From positions 2,852,001 through 2,916,000 of the forward strand of contig NZ_CP053084.1 of NCBI RefSeq assembly GCF_013004065.1: 64,000 nt of DNA, given 5' to 3'. This DNA comes from Limnobacter sp. SAORIC-580. Its GTDB lineage: Bacteria > Pseudomonadota > Gammaproteobacteria > Burkholderiales > Burkholderiaceae_B. The notes beneath the pieces are model-generated. The model saw nothing but the letters and a program-made list of their open reading frames with translations, was not told the DNA's origin and did no database searches. Position 1 is the first letter of the stretch; every line of letters begins with the position of its first letter. Made by a program: the position numbers and the translations under genes. Shown one piece after another: positions 18,811 through 33,175 of the stretch.

Positions 18811-19512
18811 TTATCTCGACATGATCTCCAGGGCTTCTGAATAGAAGTCCCTGCGGATCAACACAAACACAATCAGTGCGCTAAAGGCCATCAACAAACC
18901 TGGATGAATCATCCAGGTGACCGAGGCAATACCGAAATAATAACTGCGCAAGCCTCGGTTGAATTCATCACCGGCCAGGCTGTTGATGCGCGCCATGCGC
19001 GACACATAGGCTTCGTTGTAATCCTTGTCCGGATTACCGTCGGGTGCAGCACCTACCAAAATGGTCAGCAGGTTGAATTGGCGCAAACTCCAGGTGAATT
19101 TAAAGTAAGCCACCACAAACACGGTGAGCACCAACAGCACCTTGATTTCCATCAAACCACGGCTAACCTCCCGGCTAAACGGCAAGTCGCTGGTAATGTT
19201 GACCAACTGATCGAGCGTACCCAACAGGGCGAACAAACCGGCAATGATGTAAATCGTTGTGTTGGCATAAAAAGTAACACTGTTGACCAGGTTACCGATC
19301 AACGCGGTGTCGCCCACGCGGTTGCTGCGAGAAAGCATTTCACGCGCCCACAGTTTGCGGAACTCATGCGTTTTTTGCGCCAATCCATGGCGACCAAAGC
19401 GGCTGCGACCATCGAACACGTAGTTGTAACCCCGAAAGCAAATCACAAAAAATGCAACCGCGATCCAGTCGAATACGGTGAGCAGGGAAATTGCGGTTTG
19501 AACAGCAGTCAT
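18811..19512 (-). CDS. DUF599 family membrane protein
   Basis: 233-aa inner-membrane protein with about four hydrophobic segments. The motif pattern (FDWIAVAFFVICFRGYNYV near the start, NVxLNSVTF-like ALIGNLVNSVTFYANTTIYI in the middle) fits the uncharacterised DUF599 family. The ATG at 19512 overlaps the glycosyltransferase stop (ATGA), so the two are translationally coupled. The frame can be read from 19548, but that would lie inside the upstream gene. Last gene of the tamA-tamB-glycosyltransferase operon. Confidence 0.8.
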   Translation of the reverse strand: MTAVQTAISLLTVFDWIAVAFFVICFRGYNYVFDGRSRFGRHGLAQKTHEFRKLWAREMLSRSNRVGDTALIGNLVNSVTFYANTTIYIIAGLFALLGTLDQLVNITSDLPFSREVSRGLMEIKVLLVLTVFVVAYFKFTWSLRQFNLLTILVGAAPDGNPDKDYNEAYVSRMARINSLAGDEFNRGLRSYYFGIASVTWMIHPGLLMAFSALIVFVLIRRDFYSEALEIMSR

Positions 19513-22500
19513 GACGACACTCCAACAACTGAGAACAATTGACGCCAATTGTGCGCCGCTTCGGCGTGGCTGAAACGGTTCGCGGAAGCAAAAGCCTTTT
19601 TGCTTAAGCCTTCATGAAATTCGTAACTATCAAAAACAGAAAGTATGTGATCCGCGAGCGCATCTGTATCCCCAAATGGCGCTAGCAAACCAGTTTCACC
19701 GTGCACAATCAAATGCGAGGGTCCATACGGCACGTCAAAAGCAATTGCAGGGCATGCGTGGCAAATACTTTCCATAATGGCCAGTGAGTAAGCCTCGGCC
19801 TGGCTGGTCAACAGCGACAAACCTGCACGCATGTAATGGGCCGCAGGATCATCTGTCCAGTCATTCAAACCAACATGGTTCTGCAAGCCCAACGATTCAA
19901 GCTGTGTCTTCAAATCAGACAAGAGGGAACTACCCGCCACTGCAAAACCGTAAAAATCAAGACGCGCCTCGGGATACCTCTTCACCACTTTGGCGAAAGC
20001 TGCGATTGCCAGGTGATGATTTTTCTCGGGGCTGTATCTGGCCATGGAGACAATTCGAAATCTGTCCCGAGTCTTGAAATCCGGGATGGAGTCCTTTAAT
20101 TCGCACGAATGGCCAATGGGAAACATTTGCCCTGCCCCGTAGCGTGCAGAGATGTCATTCATTTGTTGATCGGTCAGTGTAATGACTGCATCCGGACGCT
20201 TGATGTCGTGCAAGATATCCCTGAAATTGGAGTTGGTCGGACTCGTGGCCATATCTGCCACGGTGTGTGTATGGAGAGCGTGAATAACAGGCACCACTGC
20301 CACCTGCCCAGGCGATTCCCGATGCAAGTGATCACGCGCAGTCACCGCAGGCAAGTACCAATACCGATTTTTGTCCACGATGAGCACGTGTTTACCGCCC
20401 TGCTTTTTCAACATGGAAACCAAAGCATAAGTCAGCCATTCCGATTCACTGTGCAAACAGGCCACGAGCGCCCCGGTTGAATTGTGTAGGCGAATATCCG
20501 ACAGCAGTTGTTTTTTGTCAATTCGCTTGTAAAGCTTGGCAATGGCCAATGTGCCATCGGGGCGCAAGTAGTGTTCATGGTTCACCGCGCCATCTGAATC
20601 CAGGTACTGCATGCAACTTAAAAATCCACGGCAATCGTAATAATCCTTTCTGAACTTCACTCCGCCAGAAAAATGATTGATGTGAATCAGCATGTCGTTC
20701 ACAGGATTGCGAACCACGTACATCAGCAGTTGTCCTTGCGGGCTCGTTACGCGAATATCCCGCCTGCCGGCGACCATCTGGCTGCAGAGCATTGGATTCT
20801 CAAAGAGCGACTGACCAGTGTTCAGTTGAGTTGAAACGAGCTCTGCATCCTGAAAATAATCGTGAACTGACCGGCACACTGAAGACTCGGGCAAAGCCTT
20901 GTTGGCCACCAACTTCTCGATTGACTCATGCAATCGTGGGTTATAGCGACAGGTCAACAACACTGGTCGCACATGCATCTCTTGCTCAAAAACCCGATAT
21001 CGAAGCAAAGCTGCATTCTCAACGCCCGAACGCTGAAAACCAAAGTTCTGGTTCAGAAACCAAAAATTGGTCTCTTGAACTTTGGCGTTCAATGCCTTGT
21101 TTGGCTTGGCCGGTTCCAGATTCTGAGACAAGGCACCCTGCACCAAAAACTTCCGGTAAGCCACCAAACCCGATACATAGTGCTCTACATCATCAATACG
21201 CACCCGGTAAGCATGATGCCGAATAAAAAACGAACCGTTCAGCGTGTCGGGTTTCGCAAAATACATGGCCCATTCAGGCCAAAAATAACCGGTTGTCAAA
21301 TAATTGGCGCGCCAGTGCAGGGCTCGATAAAACTTCTCGGTGTCCACCTGTGCATACAGGTCGGCAAACTCAGGCATGGTTTGCAAACGAGAGAGCATTT
21401 GTTCGGCGGCCATCATCAGCTCGAGCAAGGTCGGGAAAGTGGTGATGCGTGTCAGCACGAAATCCAGGTGATTTGCGAAATTGCGAATTCCGAACTCAAA
21501 GTACTCTCGCTTGGGTCGGTACTGGGTAAGCTCGTTCACGCAGTAGCTCATCCAGTGATCATTCGCTTTCCAGTGACGGGCTTCAATAAAATATTCAAAA
21601 GCCAACTCCACCGCTTGAAGCCACCTTGCCCTGCGGGTGATTTTGTACAAACGCATGAGGGCGAATGCGGCTTCACCATCGTAATAAATAATCCTGAATT
21701 GTTCTTTGATGGAAAGATCAGGATAGTTAAGCACATGCACAAAGCGGCGAGTGCTCGGATTAAGCATGGCAACCAGGCCTTGGGCCAGTTGCTCCATCAA
21801 TTCAATGTATTCCGTGGTGCCGGTCAGTTCGGTGTACTTGGCCAACGCGAGAATACACACCGCATTGCCACCCAGCTTGATTTCATTGCCGGTGTCGACC
21901 AAAAAGGCCGCCTGAATTCCACCGCTTAATTCAACCCGCTTGATCAACTCCTGCGTCAAGCAAAGTAGCGAACGTTCAATCGCCGACTTCAAAAAAGCGC
22001 TTTGTGTGACTTCCCATGCCTCAATCATGGCGTAGGTAGAACTTGCATGGCGAAGGGTGTTGTAGGTTGGAATTTCCTTGTTGAAGCATGGAAACAATCC
22101 ATACACGAACTGGCCGCTGTCCTTGACTTGCCGGGCCAGAAATTCGCTGGCATTGAACACCAGCTGCCGGCAGGAATCTGCATCCAGATCGGGGAGCGTG
22201 CGACGCCCTACAGCCACACCGTGAGGCTCCAGGCCGTGCACGGTTTCATCCTTACCGATGTAAGCACCTTGCGTCAAAAACAGATACACCGGCTGATCAT
22301 CATCATGATTCAACACGAATGGTTGACCATATTTCTTTCTGGCGTACTTTTCGAAATTTATAACATGGAGCTTCGCGAACTCTTCCTCTGAGCCGCCGTA
22401 CAACATGGCGTTGCCGTTGAGCTCGCCCCACAAAAAAGAATGTTTGAACTGCGGATCCAGGGCGATTCCATAACCGAAGTAATTTCGTTTTGTTGTTGAC

Positions 22501-22781
22501 AGCAGCGCCTTTAGCTCCGCCCAGCTTGTTGTTTGAATTTCGCTAACCCGATCTACGCGTACATGCTCAAAATCGAGCAATGTTTTGCGAAAGGAAGTGC
22601 ACGCATGGGAACTTAGCGCATTCCAGCTGGCTGCAAACGACTGACCCACAAATGTTTCTACGCTTGCGCGCTCAAGCCCATTGGAAGTAGACAACATCAA
22701 GACGCAGGGTTCGTGGTCGCGGACCGAGCTCACACCGGCAAACCAACTACCCAGTTTTTCAAGTCTGACAGGATTGATCAT
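19509..22781 (-). CDS. Two-part glycosyltransferase: helical-barrel-like N-terminal half, GtfA/SdgB/TarM-like GT4 C-terminal half
   Basis: 1090-aa protein, soluble, no signal peptide. Residues about 200-540 look like an alpha/alpha-barrel (repeated helices with YYDGEAAFALMRLY and similar), the fold of glycan-binding or six-hairpin enzymes. From about residue 575 it follows the plan of Gram-positive GtfA, SdgA/SdgB and TarM: an opening NFGFQRSGVENAALLRYRVF, a beta-rich insert (FRKDYYDCRGFLS near 707, then a HYLRPDGTLAI stretch), and a GT-B donor domain with RIVSMARYSPEKNHHLA near 907, the EAYSLAIME E-x7-E motif near 994 and AFDVPYGPSHLI. Members of that group add sugars to Ser-rich or Ser-Asp repeat proteins or to wall polymers. 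It starts 12 bp after tamB with SD AGGA, so it is in the tam operon and faces the Ser-Asp repeat gene at 29156. The target is inferred. Confidence 0.8.
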   Translation of the reverse strand: MINPVRLEKLGSWFAGVSSVRDHEPCVLMLSTSNGLERASVETFVGQSFAASWNALSSHACTSFRKTLLDFEHVRVDRVSEIQTTSWAELKALLSTTKRNYFGYGIALDPQFKHSFLWGELNGNAMLYGGSEEEFAKLHVINFEKYARKKYGQPFVLNHDDDQPVYLFLTQGAYIGKDETVHGLEPHGVAVGRRTLPDLDADSCRQLVFNASEFLARQVKDSGQFVYGLFPCFNKEIPTYNTLRHASSTYAMIEAWEVTQSAFLKSAIERSLLCLTQELIKRVELSGGIQAAFLVDTGNEIKLGGNAVCILALAKYTELTGTTEYIELMEQLAQGLVAMLNPSTRRFVHVLNYPDLSIKEQFRIIYYDGEAAFALMRLYKITRRARWLQAVELAFEYFIEARHWKANDHWMSYCVNELTQYRPKREYFEFGIRNFANHLDFVLTRITTFPTLLELMMAAEQMLSRLQTMPEFADLYAQVDTEKFYRALHWRANYLTTGYFWPEWAMYFAKPDTLNGSFFIRHHAYRVRIDDVEHYVSGLVAYRKFLVQGALSQNLEPAKPNKALNAKVQETNFWFLNQNFGFQRSGVENAALLRYRVFEQEMHVRPVLLTCRYNPRLHESIEKLVANKALPESSVCRSVHDYFQDAELVSTQLNTGQSLFENPMLCSQMVAGRRDIRVTSPQGQLLMYVVRNPVNDMLIHINHFSGGVKFRKDYYDCRGFLSCMQYLDSDGAVNHEHYLRPDGTLAIAKLYKRIDKKQLLSDIRLHNSTGALVACLHSESEWLTYALVSMLKKQGGKHVLIVDKNRYWYLPAVTARDHLHRESPGQVAVVPVIHALHTHTVADMATSPTNSNFRDILHDIKRPDAVITLTDQQMNDISARYGAGQMFPIGHSCELKDSIPDFKTRDRFRIVSMARYSPEKNHHLAIAAFAKVVKRYPEARLDFYGFAVAGSSLLSDLKTQLESLGLQNHVGLNDWTDDPAAHYMRAGLSLLTSQAEAYSLAIMESICHACPAIAFDVPYGPSHLIVHGETGLLAPFGDTDALADHILSVFDSYEFHEGLSKKAFASANRFSHAEAAHNWRQLFSVVGVSS

Positions 22782-22793
22782 GGTGTCCTGCGA

Positions 22794-25700
22794 TCAGTCA
22801 AAAGAGAATTGATAAAGCACATCCACTGCATTGTCCGCACCGGCTCGTGCGATGAAACTCAACTTGCGAGAGTATTGATAGTTCAATTTCAGAATACTGG
22901 CAGCCGTTGTTACAGATTGATCAAAACTCAGGTAAACACGATCGCTGAATCGCTTTCCCAGCGACACAATACGCTGGGAGAGCAAGGGGTCGTCCGATCC
23001 AATCACGTTTGCAGAGGCATCTGCACCGGGCGCAATAGCCACCTTGCTGCCCACTGCGCGGGAATCCGCTGCAGTCAGGGAACCAGTACTTAAACTCAAA
23101 TCATCAATCCCGATTGATTTCGCAATTTTGCGCGTGGTGCTTTCGTCTTCATCACCAAAAATTGCCGCAGCTGCTGTCAGCAACAAAGTGGAATCACGAT
23201 CTGCTGAACCACTGCCGCGCCCAAGGATCATCCACGACAGCTTTTCAGAATCAGGGACTGCCGGTTCACTCACCAGACTAACCTTGGGTCGCTGCGCCGT
23301 ACCAGTCACTTCAACACCCGCTTCAACTGCAACGCCTTTGCGCACCGCACGAACATTCAGTCCAGGGTTGTCCAGAGGGCCCTGGAAATTAACCACGCCG
23401 CGCTCGATTGACAGGTCTTGCCCGTATGCACGGTAGGTACCACTCACTGTTTGAATGGTGCCAGTTGCGCTCAAACGCCGGCCTGATCGGCGCTGCCCAC
23501 TGCCACCTACCCCTTCAAGCATCACCAAACGCAAACCACCCTCAAGTCGACTTCGCAAGCCCTCAGCATTCACGTAAAAGCGTTCGCCCAGATTGGCGCG
23601 CAACTGCAGATCAATTGGCAAACCCTGCCCGGCCAGTTCACTGCGCCCCTGAATAAACACATCGTCGCCCAAGGTTTGTGGACCACTTTCGGGCATCTCA
23701 AAATATGCGCCAAGGGTATCCACTTCCCCCCGAATTTTTAAGGGTTGGCCCTCGACACTGGGTTGCTGCACAGTGACAGTCGAGTTCACCATCATCCATC
23801 GGTCAGGGCGCTGCAACAAGGGAACCCTGTCCATGGACAGTCTTATTTCACCATTCAGACCTGTCAAATTCCAGACACCCTCTGCCTTCACTTTCCCGTT
23901 GCCCTGGATGAGAGGACCCAACTCCTCGATGTAGCGCCGAGGCGGGCGACGGTTGTATACCGTGAATTCAAATGTGTCGATACTGGCCTTGTCGGTGGTG
24001 AAGTCAACCACCACGTTACCGTCTTCAAAGCGTACCCCTTGATCCAGCTGAAACACATCCAGATCCATTGCAAACAAACGCCCCTGCACATCCGGGTTGT
24101 TTGCAGTACCTGCAATCGCCATGGCAACCTGGCCTGCACCGCTGGTTCTAACCCCACCGCTGATCATGGGCCCAAGCCAGTTAAGCTCTGTAAAGCCGGC
24201 TGCCACAGAGCCCTGCATGGCTTGATCACCAGCAATTTCCCAAGCTTTGGTTTGCGGATTCTGCTGAACCGGCAATTTCAAGTTTGCAGTCACCGCACCG
24301 AAATCGTCAGCAAGAATGTTCAAATCCACACTGGCCGCCTCTCGGTTAAAGTCAAGATTTGCAGTCAGGGTTCGAATATCCACGTCCACTTGTGAATCCT
24401 CCAGAATCTGCAAACCACCTGACACATGCCGGATATTCACACGACCATCCACCTTGTTGGGATTGGCCAGGTAGGTCCAGTTCACTTTCGCGATCAGGTC
24501 TTTGGGCTCTACCGTCAATTGCTTGCGCAATATTGGGGACATGCGTGGGAAATAAAACTGGGGCATTTCACCCTCAACCCGAATCTCCCTGTTCGCAATG
24601 CGAAGAATTCTGTTGTTCAACACCGAGGTGTCTTCACCTTTGAGAACAAAATCTGCAAGTTCGACATACCCCGGTGCAAGAACAAGTGGTGCCGGTGCCT
24701 GAAGTGAAAAGCTGCGGGCAGGCAACCACATTCCCTCCACTTTCAGTTGGGTAAGCTGTCCTTTCCAGCCTGAAACCGATTTCGATGTGCGCAAAACACC
24801 GATCCCACCCGCAAAAGCAAACTCGCCTTTCAATTGACGCAAGCGGCTAAATGGCTGCAAGCCACTGGAAAACACACCCCGTAACTCATGCTGATTGCGA
24901 ATGCCTCGAAGCGTCAGTTTTAATTCATTCAAGGTGTTGGTTGCCGCGCCAGGCACCTTCACTTGGCTCGCCACAATGTCACCAACCCAAGGTGAATCTG
25001 GCGCCGAACCAAGGTTGAACTGTCCGGACACTGTCTCGATTTGAATGGTGTCATCCAGTTTCAATTGGCGAACGTCGACATTGCCTTCACCCGAGAAGTT
25101 TCCGTCAAATCCACGCAGCTTTCCTTTCAATCGCGCCGTTCCCGAAAGTGGCATTTGAATCAGTTTTCCGAGGCGCGGCAGCTCATCCAGGTTCACATCC
25201 AAATCCACGAAATCAGACTGTGTTCCGTAACTCCCTTGGGCTTTCACTGTGTTGCCCACCACGTCCAGGTCCAGCAACACATTGCTTAAGCGCGACACGC
25301 CGCCAGTGGCTTTTGCAACCAGTGTAAGTGGGGCATTGGCCAAACGGGAATTCACCAAATCAAGATTGAAGTCACCCAAAGGATCAATCGTTCCAGCCTG
25401 TCCGCCCTGAACCAGAACGCCCCTGAAAGAGGCCTTCCCGTTCAAGTCACCTTGCAAGAAAGGACTGGCATCCGGAACGTAGTTGGCCGGGTTGATCTTC
25501 ATCAATTCAATCTGAACGTCAGTTGGCATTTTCCCAAGCAAATCCACATGCAACTTCCCGCGAAGCTCAGCTTGCCGGTCGCGAACCAAAAGGCGATCTA
25601 CCCGCAACTGCGTACCGTTTTTAGTGCCTTGAATAGAGGATGTCAATGCGAGTCGTTGAGGCAAAGTGGCAAACACTGACGCATCTACATTGCTTGTCTT

Positions 25701-26846
25701 GACATCAAAATTCACGTCTCCGGCCAATACATCAAGCGTGGGCACTTGATCAACCGGCTGCTTGGGCGCGCGCCATTGCATGACAGCGCTCGCATTGCCA
25801 GCCTGACGTTTTCCATCGGCCAACTGAAGCTGATCCACCCACAAATCGAGTTGTTCGGGAAGTTGATTTTGTAGAACCAACTTGAAACGGGTTTGCATGA
25901 AAGCCAGTGGCAAACCCCCAGACTGAACAGTTGAAGGCTGCGCATTCCGAACCGAGAAATTACCAATACTTTCGGAGAAATCTTCATTGGGCTCAACGGT
26001 TGCAACAATCGCTAGCGAGGCGCGCGGTGCCCCATCCAGCCAATTGGATGGATCAAAATTTTCCGCGTTTATACGCACAGTTTCAAATGGGGTTGAACCC
26101 CACAACGTAAGCACCGCATTGGCTTGCACACCCTGGGTTTGATCTGCCCTTTCTGGGTTTTCCCCTTTGGCATCCAGGGCAAGCTCCAAGCGCTCCAGGG
26201 AACCTGTTGCCGCCAGCGTGGCATTCAGTAACACATCCTCCAAATTGCGCTGTGCATTCATAGACCCAGTGATTTGATAAGGCTTTGCCAAAGTCATTTC
26301 GAGTGTGGAATCGACCTGTGTGTCACGCACACTCAAGGAAAAATTATGAACGCTTAGCTGTTCCGATTGAACCGAAACCTTCACATACACCTGCTTCAAT
26401 TCTTCACCATTCACCAACAATTGCCGCATGCTGAAATTCTGCAAATCCAGATCAACTGGCAGGCTGATTTTTTCCGGCAATACCAAAGGTGTATCGTCTT
26501 CAGAAGGCGGTGAATCGACGCGCACAACCTGTGCAGACAAATTGGTGATTCGAATCAATCGATTCAAGGCACCCGACCAGTCAATTACCAGCTGAATTTG
26601 CTCAGCTTCAACCTTGGTGTCCTCTTGCTGCCATCGAATAAACTCCAGGTCAAACCCTTGCCACAACGTGCCCTGAATGCGGCCAAACTCAAGTTGTTGG
26701 TCCGTATTGGCATTCACCCAGTCCTGCGCTTGAGCAACAGTAAACCGAAGGCCTTGTTCCGAGTGAACCACCCACAAAATTCCGGCTGTAGCAGCCACCA
26801 TGGCCGCCAGCAGCAATGTACAAAAGGCAAAGAAACCGCGCTTCAA
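22794..26846 (-). CDS. tamB: Translocation and assembly module subunit TamB
   Basis: 1350-aa protein with one N-terminal membrane anchor (FFAFCTLLLAAMVAATAGILWVV) and a long beta-rich periplasmic body, typical of TamB/AsmA-like proteins. The conserved TamB C-terminal domain (DUF490) ends in YQYSRKLSFIARAG...YQFSFD with a terminal aromatic. TamB spans the periplasm and partners TamA in inserting some outer-membrane or surface proteins; related proteins move phospholipids. Its ATG overlaps the tamA stop by 4 bp, and the glycosyltransferase gene follows after 12 bp. Confidence 0.93.
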   Translation of the reverse strand: MKRGFFAFCTLLLAAMVAATAGILWVVHSEQGLRFTVAQAQDWVNANTDQQLEFGRIQGTLWQGFDLEFIRWQQEDTKVEAEQIQLVIDWSGALNRLIRITNLSAQVVRVDSPPSEDDTPLVLPEKISLPVDLDLQNFSMRQLLVNGEELKQVYVKVSVQSEQLSVHNFSLSVRDTQVDSTLEMTLAKPYQITGSMNAQRNLEDVLLNATLAATGSLERLELALDAKGENPERADQTQGVQANAVLTLWGSTPFETVRINAENFDPSNWLDGAPRASLAIVATVEPNEDFSESIGNFSVRNAQPSTVQSGGLPLAFMQTRFKLVLQNQLPEQLDLWVDQLQLADGKRQAGNASAVMQWRAPKQPVDQVPTLDVLAGDVNFDVKTSNVDASVFATLPQRLALTSSIQGTKNGTQLRVDRLLVRDRQAELRGKLHVDLLGKMPTDVQIELMKINPANYVPDASPFLQGDLNGKASFRGVLVQGGQAGTIDPLGDFNLDLVNSRLANAPLTLVAKATGGVSRLSNVLLDLDVVGNTVKAQGSYGTQSDFVDLDVNLDELPRLGKLIQMPLSGTARLKGKLRGFDGNFSGEGNVDVRQLKLDDTIQIETVSGQFNLGSAPDSPWVGDIVASQVKVPGAATNTLNELKLTLRGIRNQHELRGVFSSGLQPFSRLRQLKGEFAFAGGIGVLRTSKSVSGWKGQLTQLKVEGMWLPARSFSLQAPAPLVLAPGYVELADFVLKGEDTSVLNNRILRIANREIRVEGEMPQFYFPRMSPILRKQLTVEPKDLIAKVNWTYLANPNKVDGRVNIRHVSGGLQILEDSQVDVDIRTLTANLDFNREAASVDLNILADDFGAVTANLKLPVQQNPQTKAWEIAGDQAMQGSVAAGFTELNWLGPMISGGVRTSGAGQVAMAIAGTANNPDVQGRLFAMDLDVFQLDQGVRFEDGNVVVDFTTDKASIDTFEFTVYNRRPPRRYIEELGPLIQGNGKVKAEGVWNLTGLNGEIRLSMDRVPLLQRPDRWMMVNSTVTVQQPSVEGQPLKIRGEVDTLGAYFEMPESGPQTLGDDVFIQGRSELAGQGLPIDLQLRANLGERFYVNAEGLRSRLEGGLRLVMLEGVGGSGQRRSGRRLSATGTIQTVSGTYRAYGQDLSIERGVVNFQGPLDNPGLNVRAVRKGVAVEAGVEVTGTAQRPKVSLVSEPAVPDSEKLSWMILGRGSGSADRDSTLLLTAAAAIFGDEDESTTRKIAKSIGIDDLSLSTGSLTAADSRAVGSKVAIAPGADASANVIGSDDPLLSQRIVSLGKRFSDRVYLSFDQSVTTAASILKLNYQYSRKLSFIARAGADNAVDVLYQFSFD

Positions 26847-28639
26847 AATGCCACCCCCAGCGCGAAGTGAATTCTTAAATTGTCCTGGTCAGCGGCTTTG
26901 GCCACATCGAAAGCAATAGGACCGGCAGGCGTTTTGTATCGAACCCCCACGCCAATTGCTGGTTTGGGATCAAAGTCGCTCCAGTTGTCTGATACATCAC
27001 CCACGTCCGTAAAAACTGCGGCGCCAAGCGGCCCCCCATCAAACCAGCGTGTGTACTCCAGGCTACCGATCATCACGCGACGACCGCCCACCAAAACCCC
27101 CTGATCAATAACACCTAGGTCAAGAAAGTCGAATCCGCGCAGGCTGTTGGTGCCCCCGGCGCGAAAGAGGTAATCCTGTGGAATATCCCGGCGTGCACTG
27201 GCCACCACCGTACCAGCCTCGAATCGGGCAGAAAATAAATTCTCCCGGGACGGTGACCAAAATTTTTGTACTCGCCCGTACAAACGCACAAAATCCTGAT
27301 CGGAGGCAAACTGTTCTGCAGCAACAGCCAGTTGACCAAAGGCAATATATCCTTCAGAGGGATTCAATCGGTCGTCAACAGCATTTCTTGTCCAGGATGA
27401 ACTTGCAACCAGCGCCTGGGTTTGTCCAAAATTGATGCCAAGCGCCCTTCGCTCTTCCAGCTGAAAATTCAGACCCAAACGGTAATCATTGATGCCTTTG
27501 TTGAACTCCCTGATCACGCCCACAGAAGAGCGATCCACTTCAAGGTTCGATATTTCCTGATGATCAATTGCAACCCCAACCGAATCGGTAATGCCGCGGG
27601 TTGACGGGGGAAGAAATACATCGGCATAAGCCGATTGACGCTTTTGCTCAACCCGAACACCAGTGACAAGTGAATAAGCCCGATCAAACAAGTTATTGAA
27701 TTGATAAGTAGCCTCGGTCCGAAACCCGGTGTTGGAGCTGTAACCTGCACCCAACCCCAGACGCTTGCTGTCACTTTCCATCACCGTGACTTCGATTGGA
27801 ACATTCACGGGCTGTCGGTCATCTGCGTCAATTTTCACGTCCACAGCTGAGAAGTAGGTTGTTCCTTGAAGATCCGCCAGCAAAGTCAACAGCCGTTCCT
27901 GTTCATATCGATCGCCAGGACGAATGGTGTTGTAACGTGAAACCAGGTCTTTGGGGTATTTGTTCAGGCCTTCTATTTGCAACTCGCCAAAAGTAAACAC
28001 AGGGCCACTGTCGTAAACCACGCGCAATGCAACTGTGTTTTTCTCGGGGTCGACATCGGCAACGCTTTCTGAAAGAGTTGCCGCAGCGAAATCTTTGGCC
28101 AGCATGTCTCGCAAAAGACTGTCTTTGCTGGCACTCCAATCCGCTTGATTAAAGGGTTGACCAACCCCCAACAGCCACAAGGTTTTCAGCCGCTCACGGC
28201 GCTGCGCAAATTCATCCTGGTTGATTTCGCCATCGAATTCAATATCCACCGAGACAATTTTACTTTGCACCCCCGGCTCGATTTTGATGTTCAGCGGTGG
28301 CGCCACATCCTCAGGAACTGTTTCATCAACAATTCGCTGAATGGAGGGGGAAAAATAACCTTCAGTACCCAAGGCATCTCGAATGGCGGGCCGCAATCTC
28401 CTGAAGAGTTGCCATGCATCCCCGTTGTCATTCACCTGTGCAGTCAAGCGAATTTGTCGCGTGGACTGCTCAATCAAATCGTTGAACTCAGAAGCAGTTT
28501 GATAATTCACAATCGGTGGATCAAACTCGGTCACCGTGTCTTGAGCGTAAACCAAGCCAATGGGTAGGCCTATTGCACAGCAAGTGGCACAAAGCCAGCG
28601 AACAGCCCTGCTTTTGTGGTTAGCCAAAAACTTCTTCAT
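26843..28639 (-). CDS. tamA: Translocation and assembly module subunit TamA (Omp85 family)
   Basis: 598-aa outer-membrane protein. A signal peptide (cleavage near LVYAQD) is followed by POTRA domains to about residue 275 (FGELQIEGLNKYP in the last one) and a 16-strand Omp85 barrel with the lid-loop motif RAGGTNSLRGF near residue 490 and a final FDVAKAADQDNLRIHFALGVAF ending in Phe. TamA works with TamB in assembling outer-membrane proteins. AGGAAAGC precedes the ATG. First gene of the operon; the divergent Ser-Asp repeat gene begins 517 bp away. Confidence 0.93.
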   Translation of the reverse strand: MKKFLANHKSRAVRWLCATCCAIGLPIGLVYAQDTVTEFDPPIVNYQTASEFNDLIEQSTRQIRLTAQVNDNGDAWQLFRRLRPAIRDALGTEGYFSPSIQRIVDETVPEDVAPPLNIKIEPGVQSKIVSVDIEFDGEINQDEFAQRRERLKTLWLLGVGQPFNQADWSASKDSLLRDMLAKDFAAATLSESVADVDPEKNTVALRVVYDSGPVFTFGELQIEGLNKYPKDLVSRYNTIRPGDRYEQERLLTLLADLQGTTYFSAVDVKIDADDRQPVNVPIEVTVMESDSKRLGLGAGYSSNTGFRTEATYQFNNLFDRAYSLVTGVRVEQKRQSAYADVFLPPSTRGITDSVGVAIDHQEISNLEVDRSSVGVIREFNKGINDYRLGLNFQLEERRALGINFGQTQALVASSSWTRNAVDDRLNPSEGYIAFGQLAVAAEQFASDQDFVRLYGRVQKFWSPSRENLFSARFEAGTVVASARRDIPQDYLFRAGGTNSLRGFDFLDLGVIDQGVLVGGRRVMIGSLEYTRWFDGGPLGAAVFTDVGDVSDNWSDFDPKPAIGVGVRYKTPAGPIAFDVAKAADQDNLRIHFALGVAF

Positions 28640-29155
28640 GCTTTCCTGAATGGATTAATCGATTCTCCCTAGATTGACACTTTGACACCCCGGCAAGACA
28701 TCGTGAATTGGTCAAGCCCAAATTGCCAATAAAAATACACAAATTTACCCTGAGGCCGACTCAATCTCATTGAAAGTCAGGCGGGGGTTCAAAAACTACA
28801 ATCTCTCATCCGAATATTTACGGGGAACCCCCCACCAAAATGGGTCCCCCAAGGAGACAAGCGCAAGGAAAAAAATCTCTGTTATATGACATGAATTTGA
28901 CATCCAGCAACTGCAAACCAAGGCAATACATTGGACCAATTATTGCAATAAACAACCACAGAACCATCGCCAATAAACAATCAATTCTCAATTATTTAAT
29001 TTCTATTTAACAATTGTATTTGTCTTTCCCGGCGAACGAAAATTAATCATGCAGATATTTGTATTTTCCTGAATCCGATTGAATCGGCTGTGAGTAAAAC
29101 GCTTATAGCAGTGGATTTGCCTACGAAACTCTCTAGCCCCAAGGAAATGTGAATC
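28640..29155. promoter_or_regulatory. 516-bp divergent intergenic region between tamA and the Ser-Asp repeat gene
   Basis: Mostly AT-rich and without a convincing gene. It holds an inverted repeat GGGGGTTC (28783-28790) with GAACCCCC (28825-28832), overlapping alternative pairings with downstream C-runs, two copies of CAATAAACAA (28946-28955 and 28971-28980), a strongly AT-rich stretch (about 28980-29060), and the palindrome and promoter candidate at 29075-29108. A 39-codon frame (28891-29010) lacks a placed ribosome binding site and is not called. Confidence 0.6.
29075..29108 (+). promoter_or_regulatory. Candidate promoter and palindromic operator of the Ser-Asp repeat gene
   Basis: CCGATTGAATCGG (29075-29087) is a perfect palindrome with a 1-bp centre. 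It overlaps a possible -35 TTGAAT (29079-29084), followed 18 bp later by TTATAG (29103-29108). A regulator bound to the palindrome would block or assist this promoter. The RBS AAGGAAA lies at 29139-29145. Confidence 0.4.
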
Positions 29156-32100
29156 ATGGAAAACGCCAACCCCGACGTGGGAATAATTAAATCGCCAGCC
29201 GGTCTTCAGGTAGAACGCGGCGGCAAGATCGTTGAGCTAAGTCAGGGCGATGCCTTGAAGTGGAATGACGTTGTAACCAACACTGGCACCCAGACCGTAG
29301 AAGTATTAATGCCTGCGGTGTCCGCCGGACATGGTGACACGCTGCTGCAACTTGCACCCAACGCGTCAGCCAAGCTGGAACAGATTACTTCCACCGTTGC
29401 GGATGGTGCAACCCGAACAGAGGTTGTCGCGCTGAGCGAAGGCGTGGAGTTGTACGACATTGACAATGATGTCAGTTCAGCAATCCTGACCCCATACGAA
29501 GGGACAATGTCAGGCTTGGTTGGTGCCGGTCTGTTGGCCGGCGGTAGCGCTGGCGCCGGTGTAGGCGCAGCTATTGGTGGCGCCGCCCTCGGTGCAATCG
29601 CGCTAAGCGACGACGGTGACGACACAGTAACTACAGTTGACCCAAGCGACGACAGCGATTCCGACTCCGACAGCGATTCCGACTCCGACAGCGATTCCGA
29701 CTCTGACAGCGATTCTGATTCCGACTCTGACAGCGATTCCGACTCCGACAGCGATTCTGACTCCGACAGCGATTCCGACTCCGACAGCGATTCCGACTCC
29801 GACAGCGATTCCGACTCCGACAGCGATTCTGACTCCGACAGCGATTCCGACTCCGACAGCGATTCTGACTCCGACAGCGATTCCGACTCCGACAGCGATT
29901 CCGACTCCGACAGCGATTCTGACTCCGACAGCGATTCTGACTCCGACAGCGATTCTGACTCCGACAGCGATTCTGACTCCGACAGCGATGCAGAAGGCGA
30001 CACCTCTGGCCTGATCGGCGGTATCGAGTCACTGAACGATGGCTTGGAACAAACTCCGCTTGCGCCAATCACTGCCGTGACAGGCGCGGTGGCTGATGGT
30101 CTTGCCACAGTATCGGATGGCATCGCGGGTGTGTCTGACCAAGACCCCACCGGCGTCGCCAACCTGCTGGCTGAAACAGTGGGCCAACCGCAAGAAGGCT
30201 ACACCAACGAGCAGGAAGGCCTTGCCGGTACGGTAAGCAACCTTTCTCAAGGTTTGGCTGAAGGCGCAGAGCCAACACCACTGGATCCACTTGTTGATCC
30301 CTTGGCGCAAACTTTGGGCTACAGCGAGAACGAGCCCGCCGCGCAGGAAGGTGTAATTTCGGCAGCAGCAGCTAACCCACGTGCTAGAAACAAAGGGGAA
30401 GTGGACGGCGTAGCCAAAGGCTTGACGAAAGCTGGTAACGTCCTCGCATCAGACGAGAGCCCATTGAGCCCATTGACTGCGGGCATCTTGGCTCCAGTCG
30501 TAGGCACCAAGGAAGACAACACCGGCTCACCCGGCGTACCTGGTACCTTGCAAGATGTGGCTGAAGGTCTGACTGACCTGACCAACCCGAACGGCGCATT
30601 CGCTCCTTTGGCACCACTGACAAGTGGCCTGGCCTTTGTAGTTGCAGGCGGTGAAGACCCAACGGGTGGACAGCTTCCTGAGCAACTCACAGGCGGACTC
30701 GCCGGTGGTGTGGCTCTTCTAGGCGAGCAAATAACCGACAATGCCGCAACGGCGGGCCCAGGTGAACCACTGGTTGAAACTGTGGGCAACCTGCTCGGTG
30801 GCGAGCGCGCAGAAGATGACGGCGGCGAACCCGGTGAAGGTGAGGAACCCGGAGAAGGCGGCACAACTGGCACTCCACTGGACGTGATCCTTGATCCGAT
30901 CGCTGAAGCAATTGGCGGCGGTGCTCCATCACTGCCGGGCTTGCCTGGCGGCGGTGAAGGTGGCATTCCAGAAACACCACTATCACCCCTGACAGACGCG
31001 TTGATGGAAAATGCGGACCCCGCTGTTTTTGCTGAGAACTTGGCAGGTGTGATCGAAGACATCGGCACCAACACACCTCTTGAGGCGGTGACCGAGCCTT
31101 TGGTTGAAGCACTACGTTCGGGTGGTCTTCCAGACATGGGTGGTGGTGACGACGGCGAAGAGCCAGAAGAACCGAACCCAACAGCTGGTCCGATCGAAAG
31201 CGCCGCTCGCCAATTTGTGGATGCAGCGCCGATCGAGATGATTCCGGCAATTGGTCAGCCAATTGAAGATGGCATCATCACTGGCGCCATGACACTGGAC
31301 GGCCTGCTGGCCGGTGGTATCCCCGGCGCACCTGCACTCCCAGGCTTGCCTGGCGGTGACGAAGGCGAACCAGGCGAAGGCCCAACCGGAACACCTCTGG
31401 ATGCAGTATTGGCTCCATTGGCCGACTTGGCTGGTGGCGGTTTGCCAGAAATCCCAGGTTTGCCTGGCGGTGACGAAGGCGAACCAGGCGAAGGCCCAAC
31501 CGGAACACCTCTAGATGCAGTATTGGCTCCATTGGCCGACTTGGCTGGCGGCGGTTTGCCAGAAATCCCAGGTTTGCCTGGCGGTGACACCGGTGGCGAG
31601 ACACCAGCACCTAATCCAGAAGCCGGTCCGATTGAAAGCGCAGCCCAGCAGTTCGTGGACGTTGCTCCAATCGAGATGATCCCAACCATTGGTCAGCCAA
31701 TTGAAGATGGCATCATCACTGGTGCTGCTGCACTGGACGGCCTGCTGGCTGGCGGAATCCCCGGCGCACCTGCACTCCCAGGCTTGCCTGGTGGTGGCGA
31801 AGGCGAACCAGGCGAAGGCCCAACCGGAACACCTCTGGATGCAGTATTGGCTCCATTGGCCGACTTGGCTGGTGGCGGTTTGCCAGAAATCCCAGGCTTG
31901 CCTGGCGGTGACACCGGTGGCGAGACACCAGCACCTAATCCAGAAGCCGGTCCGATTGAAAGCGCAGCCCAGCAGTTCGTGGACGTTGCTCCAATCGAGA
32001 TGATCCCAACCATTGGTCAGCCAATTGAAGATGGCATCATCACTGGTGCTGCTGCACTGGACGGCCTGCTGGCTGGCGGAATCCCGGGCGGTGACGCAGG

Positions 32101-32221
32101 TCTGCCTATCCCGACGGATCCGTCTGCACTGACAGATCTGTTGGGTGGCACAGGCTCTCCATTGGGCTCACTGCCCGGTGCAGACGATCTGCCAACAATC
32201 CCTGGTCTGCCCACTGCATAA
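29156..32221 (+). CDS. Ser-Asp repeat protein with LapA/FecR-like N-terminal module and Gly/Pro-rich repeats
   Basis: 1021-aa very acidic protein. Residues 1-125 resemble the retention-type module of LapA/BapA adhesins and FecR-like domains ([19 protein letters not shown], then VEVLMPA and [15 protein letters not shown]). A Gly/Ala-rich hydrophobic stretch follows ([20 protein letters not shown], about 121-145). Residues 167-278 are 56 uninterrupted Ser-Asp dipeptides. The rest is built of related modules with [19 protein letters not shown] and IPGLPGG, including 108-aa units that are almost identical. There is no Sec signal peptide, no RTX repeats and no LPXTG. The neighbouring TamAB and GtfA/SdgB-like genes suggest a glycosylated surface or biofilm protein. 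I infer this; no close family is recognised. Confidence 0.8.
29654..29989 (+). repeat. 18-bp minisatellite encoding (Ser-Asp)56
   Basis: 336 bp made of about 18.7 copies of an 18-bp unit (AGCGATTCCGACTCCGAC and TCT/TCC variants), each coding for three Ser-Asp dipeptides. Because the unit is a multiple of three, slippage changes stalk length without breaking the frame. All other frames are open here too, which creates false reading frames on both strands. Confidence 0.95.
31183..32095 (+). repeat. Long in-frame tandem repeats in the C-terminal half of the Ser-Asp repeat protein
   Basis: Three units begin at about 31183, 31621 and 31945. The second and third are spaced 324 bp (108 aa) apart and are nearly identical at DNA level. 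The first is 438 bp long because it contains an extra copy of a 114-bp sub-unit coding for [20 protein letters not shown] and its continuation. The near-identity suggests recent duplication or gene conversion. Confidence 0.85.
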
Positions 32222-32240
32222 TCTGCAATGACCCAAGAAA

Positions 32241-32264
32241 AACCCCTCCTCGGAGGGGTTTTTT
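32241..32264 (+). terminator. Intrinsic terminator after the Ser-Asp repeat gene
   Basis: AACCCCTCC (32241-32249) pairs with GGAGGGGTT (32252-32260) and runs into a T-tract. It separates the two paralogous genes into different transcription units, at least in part. Confidence 0.9.
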
Positions 32265-32335
32265 ATTTGAATCCAAATCCCGGTTCAGTGCAGTAAAAAT
32301 AATAACTTTACCGACAACCCAACGGATATCACCTT

Positions 32336-33175
32336 ATGAGCACGGCACCTCAAATCGGCACCATTGCCTCAAAAACCGACAAGCTATTGGTTCAGCGCCA
32401 AGGCGAGCAACTCACCTTGCGTCAAGGCGATGCAATTTTGGCCGGCGATGTTTTACAGAACAAAGATCTGGTCGCCGTGGACATTGAACTACCAGGGCAG
32501 GCCGCCGGCCAAGCCGACTCACTGGTGACCTTGGCGCCGGAATCAGCTGCTCAAATCGCCACAAACTCAGCCGCCGAAGGCGGCATGATTGAAGTGACCT
32601 CCTTGACAGAAGGCGTTGAACTTTTTGCGGTCAGTGAAGGCACTGATGGTGCCATCTTGCTCGCTGATGCCGGCACAGGCTTTAGTGGACTGGTTGGTGC
32701 AGGTCTGCTTTCCGCCGGCACTGCCGGTGGGGCCAGCGGAATTGCCACTGCGATCGGTGGCGGCGTGGGTGTGGCTGCACTTGCCGCCTCATCTGGCGAC
32801 GACACCAACGTAGAAGGTTCAGCCTTTACCGATGTACGCGTGGACAACGGCGATGAAACAACAGAACCTGTTGACGATCCCGAGAATCCCGACGAAAGCG
32901 AAAATCCCGAAGATCCGGAGAATCCGGAAGACCCTGAAGATCCAGTCGACAACCCGGAAGAACCCGAAGAACCAACAGATCCCGTAGACGAAGGAACCAC
33001 TGGCACGCCACTGGATGCTGTACTCGACCCCTTGGCCGATGCACTCGGAGGCACCCCCTTGTCGGTGATTTCCGATCCCTTGTTTGATGCCTTGGGGTCC
33101 CTCCCAATCGGCTCAGCACCCAACCCTGCAGATTCATTGCCACTGGACGCCGTCACAGGCAACTTGCCAATCTGA
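32336..33175 (+). CDS. Paralogue of the Ser-Asp repeat protein with a Glu/Pro/Asp-rich stalk
   Basis: 279-aa acidic protein with the same plan as the upstream gene product. LapA/FecR-like N-terminal module (LLVQRQGEQLTLRQGDAILAG, SLVTLAPESAAQIA), Gly/Ala-rich hydrophobic stretch (LVGAGLLSAGTAGGASGIA), then instead of Ser-Asp a stalk of Glu/Pro/Asp/Asn repeats (ENPEDPENPEDPEDP, about residues 183-222), and a C-terminal module [18 protein letters not shown] shared with the larger protein. No signal peptide is visible. Weak ribosome binding site. It has its own terminators on both sides, so it may be expressed separately. Function unknown; probably the same location or pathway as its paralogue. 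Confidence 0.78.
   Translation: MSTAPQIGTIASKTDKLLVQRQGEQLTLRQGDAILAGDVLQNKDLVAVDIELPGQAAGQADSLVTLAPESAAQIATNSAAEGGMIEVTSLTEGVELFAVSEGTDGAILLADAGTGFSGLVGAGLLSAGTAGGASGIATAIGGGVGVAALAASSGDDTNVEGSAFTDVRVDNGDETTEPVDDPENPDESENPEDPENPEDPEDPVDNPEEPEEPTDPVDEGTTGTPLDAVLDPLADALGGTPLSVISDPLFDALGSLPIGSAPNPADSLPLDAVTGNLPI

What the first reader, a model, noticed from the sequence alone, without database searches (positions are those of the whole stretch)
18811..33175. Candidate Gram-negative Ser-Asp-repeat glycoprotein system linked to TamAB
Seen: tamA, tamB, a 1090-aa protein and a DUF599 gene form one tight minus-strand operon (4-bp overlap, 12-bp gap, 4-bp overlap). Divergent from it is a gene for a protein with 56 uninterrupted Ser-Asp dipeptides, followed by a paralogue. 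The C-terminal half of the 1090-aa protein follows the plan of GtfA/SdgA/SdgB/TarM (RSGVENA opening, DYYDCRGF insert, E-x7-E, FDVPYGP). Known: SdgA/SdgB glycosylate Ser-Asp repeats of staphylococcal Sdr/Clf proteins, and GtfA/B glycosylate streptococcal serine-rich repeat adhesins. Inferred: here the glycosyltransferase modifies the Ser-Asp stalk and TamAB helps assemble or export the product. Such a system in a betaproteobacterium would be new to me.
Basis: partly seen in the sequence, partly recalled or inferred. Interest (0 to 1): 0.9.

Follow-up and report, generated by a model that had tools for sequence, protein, structure and literature searches.

The report
Glycosylation machinery for serine-aspartate surface stalks
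A Limnobacter gene probably encodes an enzyme that attaches sugars to a neighbouring surface protein's long serine-aspartate stalk, and in related systems of other bacteria the type of modifying enzyme tends to change together with the two-letter repeat of the stalk.

Summary
In detail: tamA-tamB-P0003-DUF599, divergent from a 1021-aa protein with 56 perfect Ser-Asp repeats and its paralogue. The glycosyltransferase call holds (SdgB profile 1.5e-61; 10 of 14 mapped donor/catalytic residues identical). The overlooked key is P0003's first 560 residues (NTD), a family with no significant Pfam or NCBIfam match (predicted (alpha/alpha)6 barrel plus a smaller domain). Its relatives often sit beside Asp-X dipeptide-stalk adhesins, in Proteobacteria and in Staphylococcus, Listeria and Enterococcus, with interchangeable enzymes. 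In the 61 cases classifiable, SdgB-like transferases go with (DS)n in 13 of 13, Mur ligases with (DA)n in 46 of 48. Within Limnobacter the adhesin has a DS stalk with SdgB (8 of 8), a DA stalk with Mur (4 of 4), and GT or NT stalks where the NTD is absent (3 of 3 visible; GT41 transferase genes beside two). The staphylococcal member is very probably GtfC, shown by others, with GtfD, to glycosylate Ser-Asp repeats of Pls. Best reading: P0003 is a GtfC-GtfD-like fusion that O-glycosylates the stalk. The TamAB linkage was seen only in Limnobacter; elsewhere type I secretion genes usually accompany the system. Limits: few independent switches (sign test p 0.25), no biochemistry, Mur-ligase chemistry inferred.

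The parts
19509..22781 (-). P0003, 1090 aa, fusion of the NTD module (GtfC-like) and an SdgB/GtfD-like GT4 glycosyltransferase; proposed stalk O-glycosyltransferase
21102..22781 (-). NTD module, residues 1-560 of P0003; residues 197-553 modelled as (alpha/alpha)6 barrel like cellobiose 2-epimerase / GH76; residues 1-196 a separate alpha/beta domain, weakly AMMECR1-like
   Evidence: no significant Pfam or NCBIfam match
19509..21071 (-). SdgB-like GT4 domain, residues 571-1090 of P0003, with stop codon
   Evidence: NCBIfam SdgB 1.5e-61; PDB 7ec1 8.1e-51; residue mapping
29156..32221 (+). P0001, 1021 aa stalk protein: N-terminal prefix domain, Gly/Ala-rich hydrophobic segment, (Ser-Asp)56, Pro/Gly/acidic repeats; proposed substrate
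29651..29986 (+). (Ser-Asp)56 array, residues 166-277
   Evidence: TRF
32336..33175 (+). P0002, 279 aa paralogue with the same prefix domain but no Asp-X dipeptide array
26843..28639 (-). tamA
22794..26846 (-). tamB
18811..19512 (-). DUF599 membrane protein gene (ATG start at 19512; the ORF listing starts at 19548)

Best explanation
P0003 is a cytoplasmic, stalk-dedicated O-glycosyltransferase: its SdgB/GtfD-like half transfers a sugar (GlcNAc or another HexNAc most likely) to the serines of the (Ser-Asp)56 stalk of P0001, and its N-terminal half (the GtfC-like NTD module) helps, by extending or processing the sugar or by engaging the Asp-X repeat. The product would be a stiff, protected surface stalk that serves attachment. 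It is one version of a wider modular system in which the NTD module is joined to, or encoded beside, an enzyme suited to the repeat: SdgB-like transferase for Asp-Ser, Mur ligase for Asp-Ala. Shown by sequence: homologies, residue conservation, and the paired occurrence of enzyme and repeat. Shown by others in staphylococci: glycosylation of Ser-Asp repeats by SdgB/SdgA and by GtfC/GtfD. Inferred: that this pair does the same in Limnobacter, the place, the sugar, the NTD chemistry, the stalk's physical role and the export route.
For: SdgB profile 1.5e-61 over residues 573-1084; PDB 7ec1 8.1e-51. Of 14 donor/catalytic positions of SdgB mapped, 10 are identical (G15, H246, R329, K334, Y358, E406, S409, L410, A411, E414), and of 14 groove/dimer-domain positions 6 (D99, R101, Y111, N126, F128, K134) (residue roles from PMC8561734, passages and section 18). 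Limnobacter: DS stalk in 8 of 8 loci with NTD-SdgB; DA in 4 of 4 cases with NTD-Mur, one of them (L053) at the same operon position; no Asp-X repeat in 3 of 3 NTD-less species with a visible adhesin. Over all classified NTDs (61 of 112 in the tree): SdgB/DS 13, SdgB/DA 0, Mur/DA 46, Mur/DS 2. SdgB cases outside Limnobacter: another family of the same order (L182), K. aerogenes and E. coli records (L293, L296) and S. epidermidis, in one case directly after sdrF (L297, L298); their GT domains are about 25% identical to the window's and keep H834, R915, K920, E996, E1004. S. aureus GtfC (538 aa, directly after pls, convergent with 503-aa GtfD), the arrangement of L298, glycosylates Pls Ser-Asp repeats together with GtfD (PMC5230774, section 10).
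Against: Only 3 independent effector contrasts on supported branches (5 on all), sign test median p 0.25. Two Methylobacter loci (L011, L012) pair Mur ligase with DS; DS arrays also occur with NTD-CapA (L204, DS110) and NTD-methyltransferase (L010, DA130 and DS80), and the SdgB-like gene of L231 has no Asp-X adhesin in the 38 kb fetched. P0003 scores far below NCBI's cut-off for SdgB (208.6 vs 800 bits). Only 2 of 8 mapped acceptor-domain residues (G10, Y227) are identical, and 8 of 14 groove/dimer-domain ones differ. In K. aerogenes the SdgB match covers model positions 156-493 only and the groove residues are not kept. Of 99 NTD genes 36 had no Asp-X adhesin in the region fetched. GtfC itself was not compared letter by letter. 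No biochemical data for Limnobacter.
Confidence: 0.8

Rival explanations
1. P0003 makes a cell-surface polysaccharide or modifies a lipid or cell-wall polymer; its neighbourhood with the stalk gene is historical.
For: GT4 enzymes are mostly polysaccharide enzymes (general knowledge); the NTD barrel resembles sugar epimerases and GH76; NTD relatives are often fused to CapA-like and Mur-ligase domains that also serve polymer synthesis; 36 of 99 NTD genes showed no Asp-X adhesin in the region fetched.
Against: Its closest solved relatives are Ser-Asp repeat O-glycosyltransferases; enzyme type and stalk dipeptide differ together, even at one orthologous locus; 63 of 99 NTD genes lie near, or in two Limnobacter cases share a genome with, an Asp-X stalk gene.
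Confidence: 0.1
2. The pairing of enzyme and repeat is an accident of ancestry: a few lineages happened to have both.
For: Only five inferred effector changes; sign test p 0.25; Methylobacter exceptions; quick trees with long branches.
Against: SdgB/DS pairs occur in Limnobacter, L182, enterobacteria and S. epidermidis, and no independent contrast went the other way; one Limnobacter genome (G005) holds both pairs, NTD-SdgB with DS and, elsewhere, NTD-Mur with DA; NTD-less Limnobacter with GT/NT stalks have GT41-type genes at the locus in two of three cases.
Confidence: 0.12
3. TamAB is the dedicated exporter or assembly factor of the glycosylated stalk protein.
For: In Limnobacter the stalk gene is divergent from tamA in the window, L002-L008, L053 and L175-L179 (with a GT41 gene in between in L176 and L177), and tamA, tamB and the enzyme are tightly packed in most.
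Against: tamAB persists in species whose enzyme lies elsewhere or is absent (L175-L179); the second stalk gene of G005 (L056) has no tamAB in its 20 kb; no adhesin was seen in the 2.3 kb before tamA of L180; no tamB in the regions of 87 non-Limnobacter NTD genes, while 37 of the 51 with an Asp-X adhesin have type I secretion ABC and HlyD genes there; the own genome has three HlyD-type loci elsewhere.
Confidence: 0.2

Closest known systems
GtfC/GtfD and Pls of Staphylococcus aureus (PMC5230774; section 10 and passages read)
   Same: A 538-aa protein not classed as a glycosyltransferase by CAZy plus an about 500-aa transferase beside a Ser-Asp repeat surface protein; both needed for full glycosylation of Pls, HexNAc on serines, more biofilm. 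NTD relatives of 538 aa in staphylococci show the same arrangement (L298).
   Different: In Limnobacter the two parts are fused in one protein in the order GtfC-GtfD; the substrate is not an LPXTG protein; tamAB is in the operon.
SdgA/SdgB and Sdr/Clf proteins of staphylococci (PMC3794999, PMC8561734; passages and one section read)
   Same: Transferase of the same family with the same main catalytic residues and a partly conserved Ser-Asp groove; Ser-Asp stalk substrate.
   Different: About 25-28% identical to the staphylococcal SdgB-like proteins compared, below the NCBI cut-off; no second transferase gene beside it at the locus; different adhesin type; extra NTD.
BapA of Paracoccus denitrificans (891 Asp-Ala repeats; PMC5588039) and beta-type BAPs of Acinetobacter (SD or SA dipeptides; PMC4647330); passages read
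   Same: Gram-negative surface adhesins with long dipeptide stalks; many NTD-Mur systems found here accompany (DA)n adhesins with BapA-type prefix and type I secretion.
   Different: P0001 has no BapA_N match at the thresholds used and no type I secretion locus beside it; the passages read report no modifying enzyme (the Paracoccus authors could not exclude a modification).
Cellobiose/N-acylglucosamine 2-epimerase superfamily and GH76
   Different: 11% identity; active-site equivalence not tested; extra N-terminal domain.

Membership tests
SdgB/SdgA/GtfD Ser-Asp repeat O-glycosyltransferases | Full-length match including the inserted DUF1975/EBD domain | tested here: met
   NCBIfam SdgB residues 573-1084 vs model 2-494; 7ec1 4-494; the Pfam model of the GtfA insert alone is only weak (E 0.14)
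SdgB/SdgA/GtfD Ser-Asp repeat O-glycosyltransferases | Catalytic/donor residues H246, R329, K334, E406, E414 | tested here: met
   H834, R915, K920, E996, E1004; also kept in the four other SdgB-like sequences aligned
SdgB/SdgA/GtfD Ser-Asp repeat O-glycosyltransferases | Acceptor and Ser-Asp groove residues | tested here: inconclusive
   6 of 14 groove/dimer-domain and 2 of 8 acceptor-domain residues identical
SdgB/SdgA/GtfD Ser-Asp repeat O-glycosyltransferases | NCBI curated score cut-off for SdgB (800 bits) | tested here: not met
   208.6 bits; so a relative, not SdgB proper
SdgB/SdgA/GtfD Ser-Asp repeat O-glycosyltransferases | Encoded with a Ser-Asp repeat protein | tested here: met
   8 of 8 Limnobacter NTD-SdgB loci
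SdgB/SdgA/GtfD Ser-Asp repeat O-glycosyltransferases | Transfers GlcNAc to Ser of (SD)n | not testable with these tools
   -
GtfC (Pls-modifying protein) family | Homology of the NTD to staphylococcal 538-aa proteins beside Ser-Asp or Asp-Ala adhesins | tested here: met
   37-40% identity over 84-87% of the NTD in 14 of 15 staphylococcal records, 70% in one; contexts L295, L297, L298
GtfC (Pls-modifying protein) family | Direct alignment with S. aureus COL GtfC (SACOL0051) | not tested
   Sequence not at hand; identification rests on length, position, partner and similarity described in PMC5230774
Sdr/Clf MSCRAMM | LPXTG anchor and SdrD-B/Ig-like domains | tested here: not met
   No Pfam match in P0001; NCBIfam Sdr/Clf matches centre on the SD array
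BapA/LapA-type type I secreted adhesin | BapA_N prefix or retention-module match | tested here: inconclusive
   No match of P0001; same layout prefix - hydrophobic Gly/Ala segment - Asp-X array as in adhesins such as L018 and L027, by eye; L182 adhesin matches BapA_N
BapA/LapA-type type I secreted adhesin | Type I secretion genes beside the adhesin | tested here: not met
   No HlyD match near the stalk gene in the Limnobacter loci fetched; three HlyD-type loci elsewhere in the genome
Cellobiose/N-acylglucosamine 2-epimerase | (alpha/alpha)6 barrel fold | tested here: met
Cellobiose/N-acylglucosamine 2-epimerase | Catalytic His pair (recalled) | not tested
   Residue-level structural alignment not available
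AMMECR1 | Fold of residues 1-202 | tested here: inconclusive

The most novel reading that the evidence does not exclude
Bacteria of the Proteobacteria and Bacillota share one modular system for chemically modifying dipeptide stalks of surface adhesins. A constant module (the NTD, proposed here to be the GtfC family) is combined with exchangeable enzymes, and enzyme and repeat form a code: Asp-Ser with SdgB-type O-glycosyltransferases; Asp-Ala, which has no hydroxyl group, with MurF-like ligases that would attach amino acids to the Asp side chains (cyanophycin-like), sometimes with D,D-carboxypeptidase or CapA/MslH-like domains; other versions use methyltransferase, ATP-grasp or Fic domains. 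Side-chain amidation of a poly(Asp-Ala) protein stalk would be a new protein modification.
Probability: 0.5. Interest if true: 0.93.

Novelty: new variant of a known kind. Interest (0 to 1): 0.82.

Why it matters
Glycosylated Ser-Asp stalks are known from staphylococci, where they bear on biofilm and immune recognition. This locus ties the same chemistry to Gram-negative bacteria, suggests a fold for the puzzling GtfC protein (538 aa, not classed by CAZy), and gives a testable rule (enzyme matches repeat) that predicts an undescribed modification of Asp-Ala stalks such as that of Paracoccus BapA, whose unusual gel mobility its authors could not fully explain.

Tried and rejected

Sampling: regions were fetched for 20 of the 41 places listed for Microbulbifer, 26 of the more than 100 listed for Variovorax (20, 6) and 14 of the 16 listed for the family of G415 (the other two were already held). 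Extension regions were fetched for a chosen part of these.

Literature: searches listed no paper whose title points to the enzyme/repeat pairing or to Mur ligases acting on Asp-Ala repeats; only the best of each search are listed, and the library lacks most subscription journals and preprints. Papers seen in part: PMC8561734 (section 18, passages), PMC5230774 (section 10, passages), PMC4647330, PMC5588039, PMC3794999, PMC7029136, PMC13235738 (passages only). Family names such as VanY (PF02557) and ATP-grasp (PF14398) for domains given as accessions are recalled.
Full report
Observation. tamA and tamB overlap by 4 bp, 12 bp separate tamB from the 1090-aa gene (P0003), and DUF599 overlaps it by 4 bp from its ATG. 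The divergent gene P0001 holds 56 uninterrupted Ser-Asp pairs (residues 166-277) spelled with five codons, so the peptide and not only the DNA repeats. P0002 shares its N-terminal domain. No other Asp-containing dipeptide array was found in the rest of the window or in three other 20-kb stretches of the genome.

The glycosyltransferase half. Residues 573-1084 match the SdgB profile (1.5e-61), SdgA (1.2e-50) and GtfA (5e-22) and the solved SdgB chains (8.1e-51). From the printed alignment and the residue roles in PMC8561734 (passages and section 18), 10 of 14 donor/catalytic residues are identical (L386, L389, G407 and F408 differ); of 14 groove/dimer-domain residues D99, R101, Y111, N126, F128 and K134 are identical, R137 is Lys, and S97, Y103, F108, Y124, R132, R150 and Y265 differ; of 8 acceptor-domain residues only G10 and Y227 are identical. 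It scores 208.6 bits against a cut-off of 800, so it is a relative of SdgB and not SdgB itself.

What the NTD is joined to. Among the relatives, after the NTD, come a Mur ligase (commonest in the 120 listed), CapA plus Mur ligase, CapA plus GT4, GT4, GT2, a methyltransferase, Fic, S11 or VanY carboxypeptidase, or ATP-grasp; others are single-domain. The Mur half of the protein named Limnobacter parvus is closest to MurF (2.6e-33; cyanophycin synthase 0.0025). The CapA-like part of L231 matches the MslH peptide-epimerase model (2.1e-24, 85.7 bits, far below its cut-off of 700).

Neighbourhoods. I annotated 99 different NTD genes in fetched regions (sampling under Tried and rejected). 63 have an Asp-X dipeptide-repeat ORF in the fetched regions, 36 do not; many of the 36 are Variovorax loci or contig ends. 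For Limnobacter G012 and G015 the adhesin and NTD gene are in one genome but not side by side. Of 51 non-Limnobacter genes with such an adhesin, 37 also have type I secretion ABC and HlyD genes in the region; tamB is in the region of none of 87.

Limnobacter as natural experiment. 10 of 16 genomes have the NTD. In 8 of 8 NTD-SdgB loci (window, L002-L008; in L007 with a CapA domain between) the stalk is (DS)n, from 10 to 59 units, cut by the contig end in L003 and L006. Three NTD-less species whose adhesin was visible have (GT)42, (GT)27 and (NT)11 stalks; G003 and G011 have a TPR-GT41 (O-GlcNAc transferase family) gene between adhesin and tamA, and G003 also a GlcNAc-transferase/FkbM gene between tamB and DUF599; none was recognised for G002. 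G007 and G008 (contig ends) and G013 (no TamB match, not fetched) could not be judged.

Other lineages. L182 (another family of the same order) has a (DS)540 BapA_N adhesin, type I secretion genes, a single-domain NTD and a single-domain SdgB-like gene in one row. A Klebsiella aerogenes record and 3 of 5426 E. coli genomes (plasmids) carry an NTD-SdgB fusion; in the two examined (L293, L296) type I secretion genes and DS-repeat ORFs lie beside it; the K. aerogenes GT matches SdgB over model positions 156-493 only. Among plasmid-collection records the NTD matches 54 of 72,556, including Staphylococcus 15, Enterococcus 6, Acinetobacter 4 and Listeria 2 (some of these records are very large and may be chromosomes). 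In S. epidermidis it follows sdrF (DS arrays of 159 units) or another DS adhesin (233) and faces an SdgB-like gene; in S. simulans it lies between an adhesin with (AD)454 and a Mur ligase; in Listeria it follows an (AD)n LPXTG protein; in S. lugdunensis the stalk is mixed SD/DA and the Mur ligase is in two ORFs; three other staphylococcal records (L290, L291, L302) have NTD and Mur but no adhesin seen, and Acinetobacter L299 no Asp-X array in the ORFs read. Divergent single-domain NTDs in the family of G415 (Agrobacterium) sit by (DG)n proteins.

Counting. With 112 NTDs in the tree, 61 have both a classified enzyme (fused or adjacent) and a DS or DA stalk: SdgB/DS 13, SdgB/DA 0, Mur/DA 46, Mur/DS 2 (Methylobacter L011 and L012). 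The tree implies 5 enzyme and 6 dipeptide changes; 3 independent contrasts lie on supported branches (5 on all), on average 2.8 agree and none oppose; so few cannot be significant (p 0.25). Fisher's p of 1.6e-11 ignores kinship. DS arrays with other partners (L204, L010) are outside this table.

Link to experiment. PMC5230774 (section 10 and passages) shows that gtfC and gtfD after pls mediate glycosylation of Pls, at serines of the Ser-Asp repeats and with HexNAc, that GtfD suffices for weak glycosylation with the genes of one strain and both are required with those of another, and that glycosylation promotes biofilm. GtfC is 538 aa, not classed by CAZy, follows the adhesin gene and converges with GtfD; this is the arrangement of L298, whose NTD is also 538 aa, and staphylococcal NTD relatives bear the name poly(glycerol-phosphate) alpha-glucosyltransferase that the paper gives for GtfC's best matches. 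I could not align GtfC itself, so the identity is a strong inference. PMC5588039 (passages) describes Paracoccus BapA with 891 Asp-Ala repeats, needed for biofilm, running oddly in gels; PMC4647330 (passages) describes Acinetobacter BAPs with SD or SA stalks.

Mechanism proposed. P0003 (no secretion signal evident by eye) acts in the cytoplasm on P0001 before export, putting HexNAc on the stalk serines through its SdgB-like half; the NTD, common to DS, DA and DG systems, most likely handles the Asp-X chain or a step common to all, its chemistry being unknown. Export may use one of three type I secretion-like loci elsewhere in the genome or a TamAB-aided path; the tools cannot decide.

Verdict. 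The glycosylation reading is well supported by comparison and by published work on staphylococcal relatives; the TamAB part is not. The wider finding, a modular stalk-modification system with matched enzyme and repeat, is the more important result and predicts a modification of Asp-Ala stalks that I did not find described.

Noticed in passing
L005:4981-9034 (also L048): tamB of this Limnobacter contig is split over two overlapping ORFs, a frameshift or an assembly error.
   Followed up: no
L240:5933-8923, L241:5786-8956, L242:11003-13771: Proteins with (DG)n arrays that end in a beta-strand-like sequence (GLRIKW/GLRIRW), as outer-membrane barrel proteins do, beside divergent single-domain NTD genes.
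   Followed up: partly
L231:404-4375: CapA-like domain fused to an SdgB-like GT near a single-domain NTD; its CapA part matches the MslH lasso-peptide epimerase model below cut-off, hinting at epimerisation. No Asp-X adhesin in the 38 kb fetched; a gene reading like Hcp (type VI secretion, by eye) lies nearby.
   Followed up: partly
L010:4837-6738: LapD-type receptor gene upstream of a Methylobacter adhesin with TSP, DA and DS arrays beside an NTD-methyltransferase gene.
   Followed up: no
L176:15480-17453 and L177:2951-4924: TPR-GT41 (O-GlcNAc transferase family) genes between adhesin and tamA in NTD-less Limnobacter with GT or NT stalks.
   Followed up: partly
L209-L225, L243-L247: Variovorax genomes carry several NTD genes (often CapA-Mur fusions) without an Asp-X adhesin in the fetched region; their substrate is unknown.
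   Followed up: partly
L301:11426-12298: Mur ligase beside the S. lugdunensis plasmid NTD is present as two ORFs; the neighbouring adhesin has a mixed SD/DA stalk.
   Followed up: no
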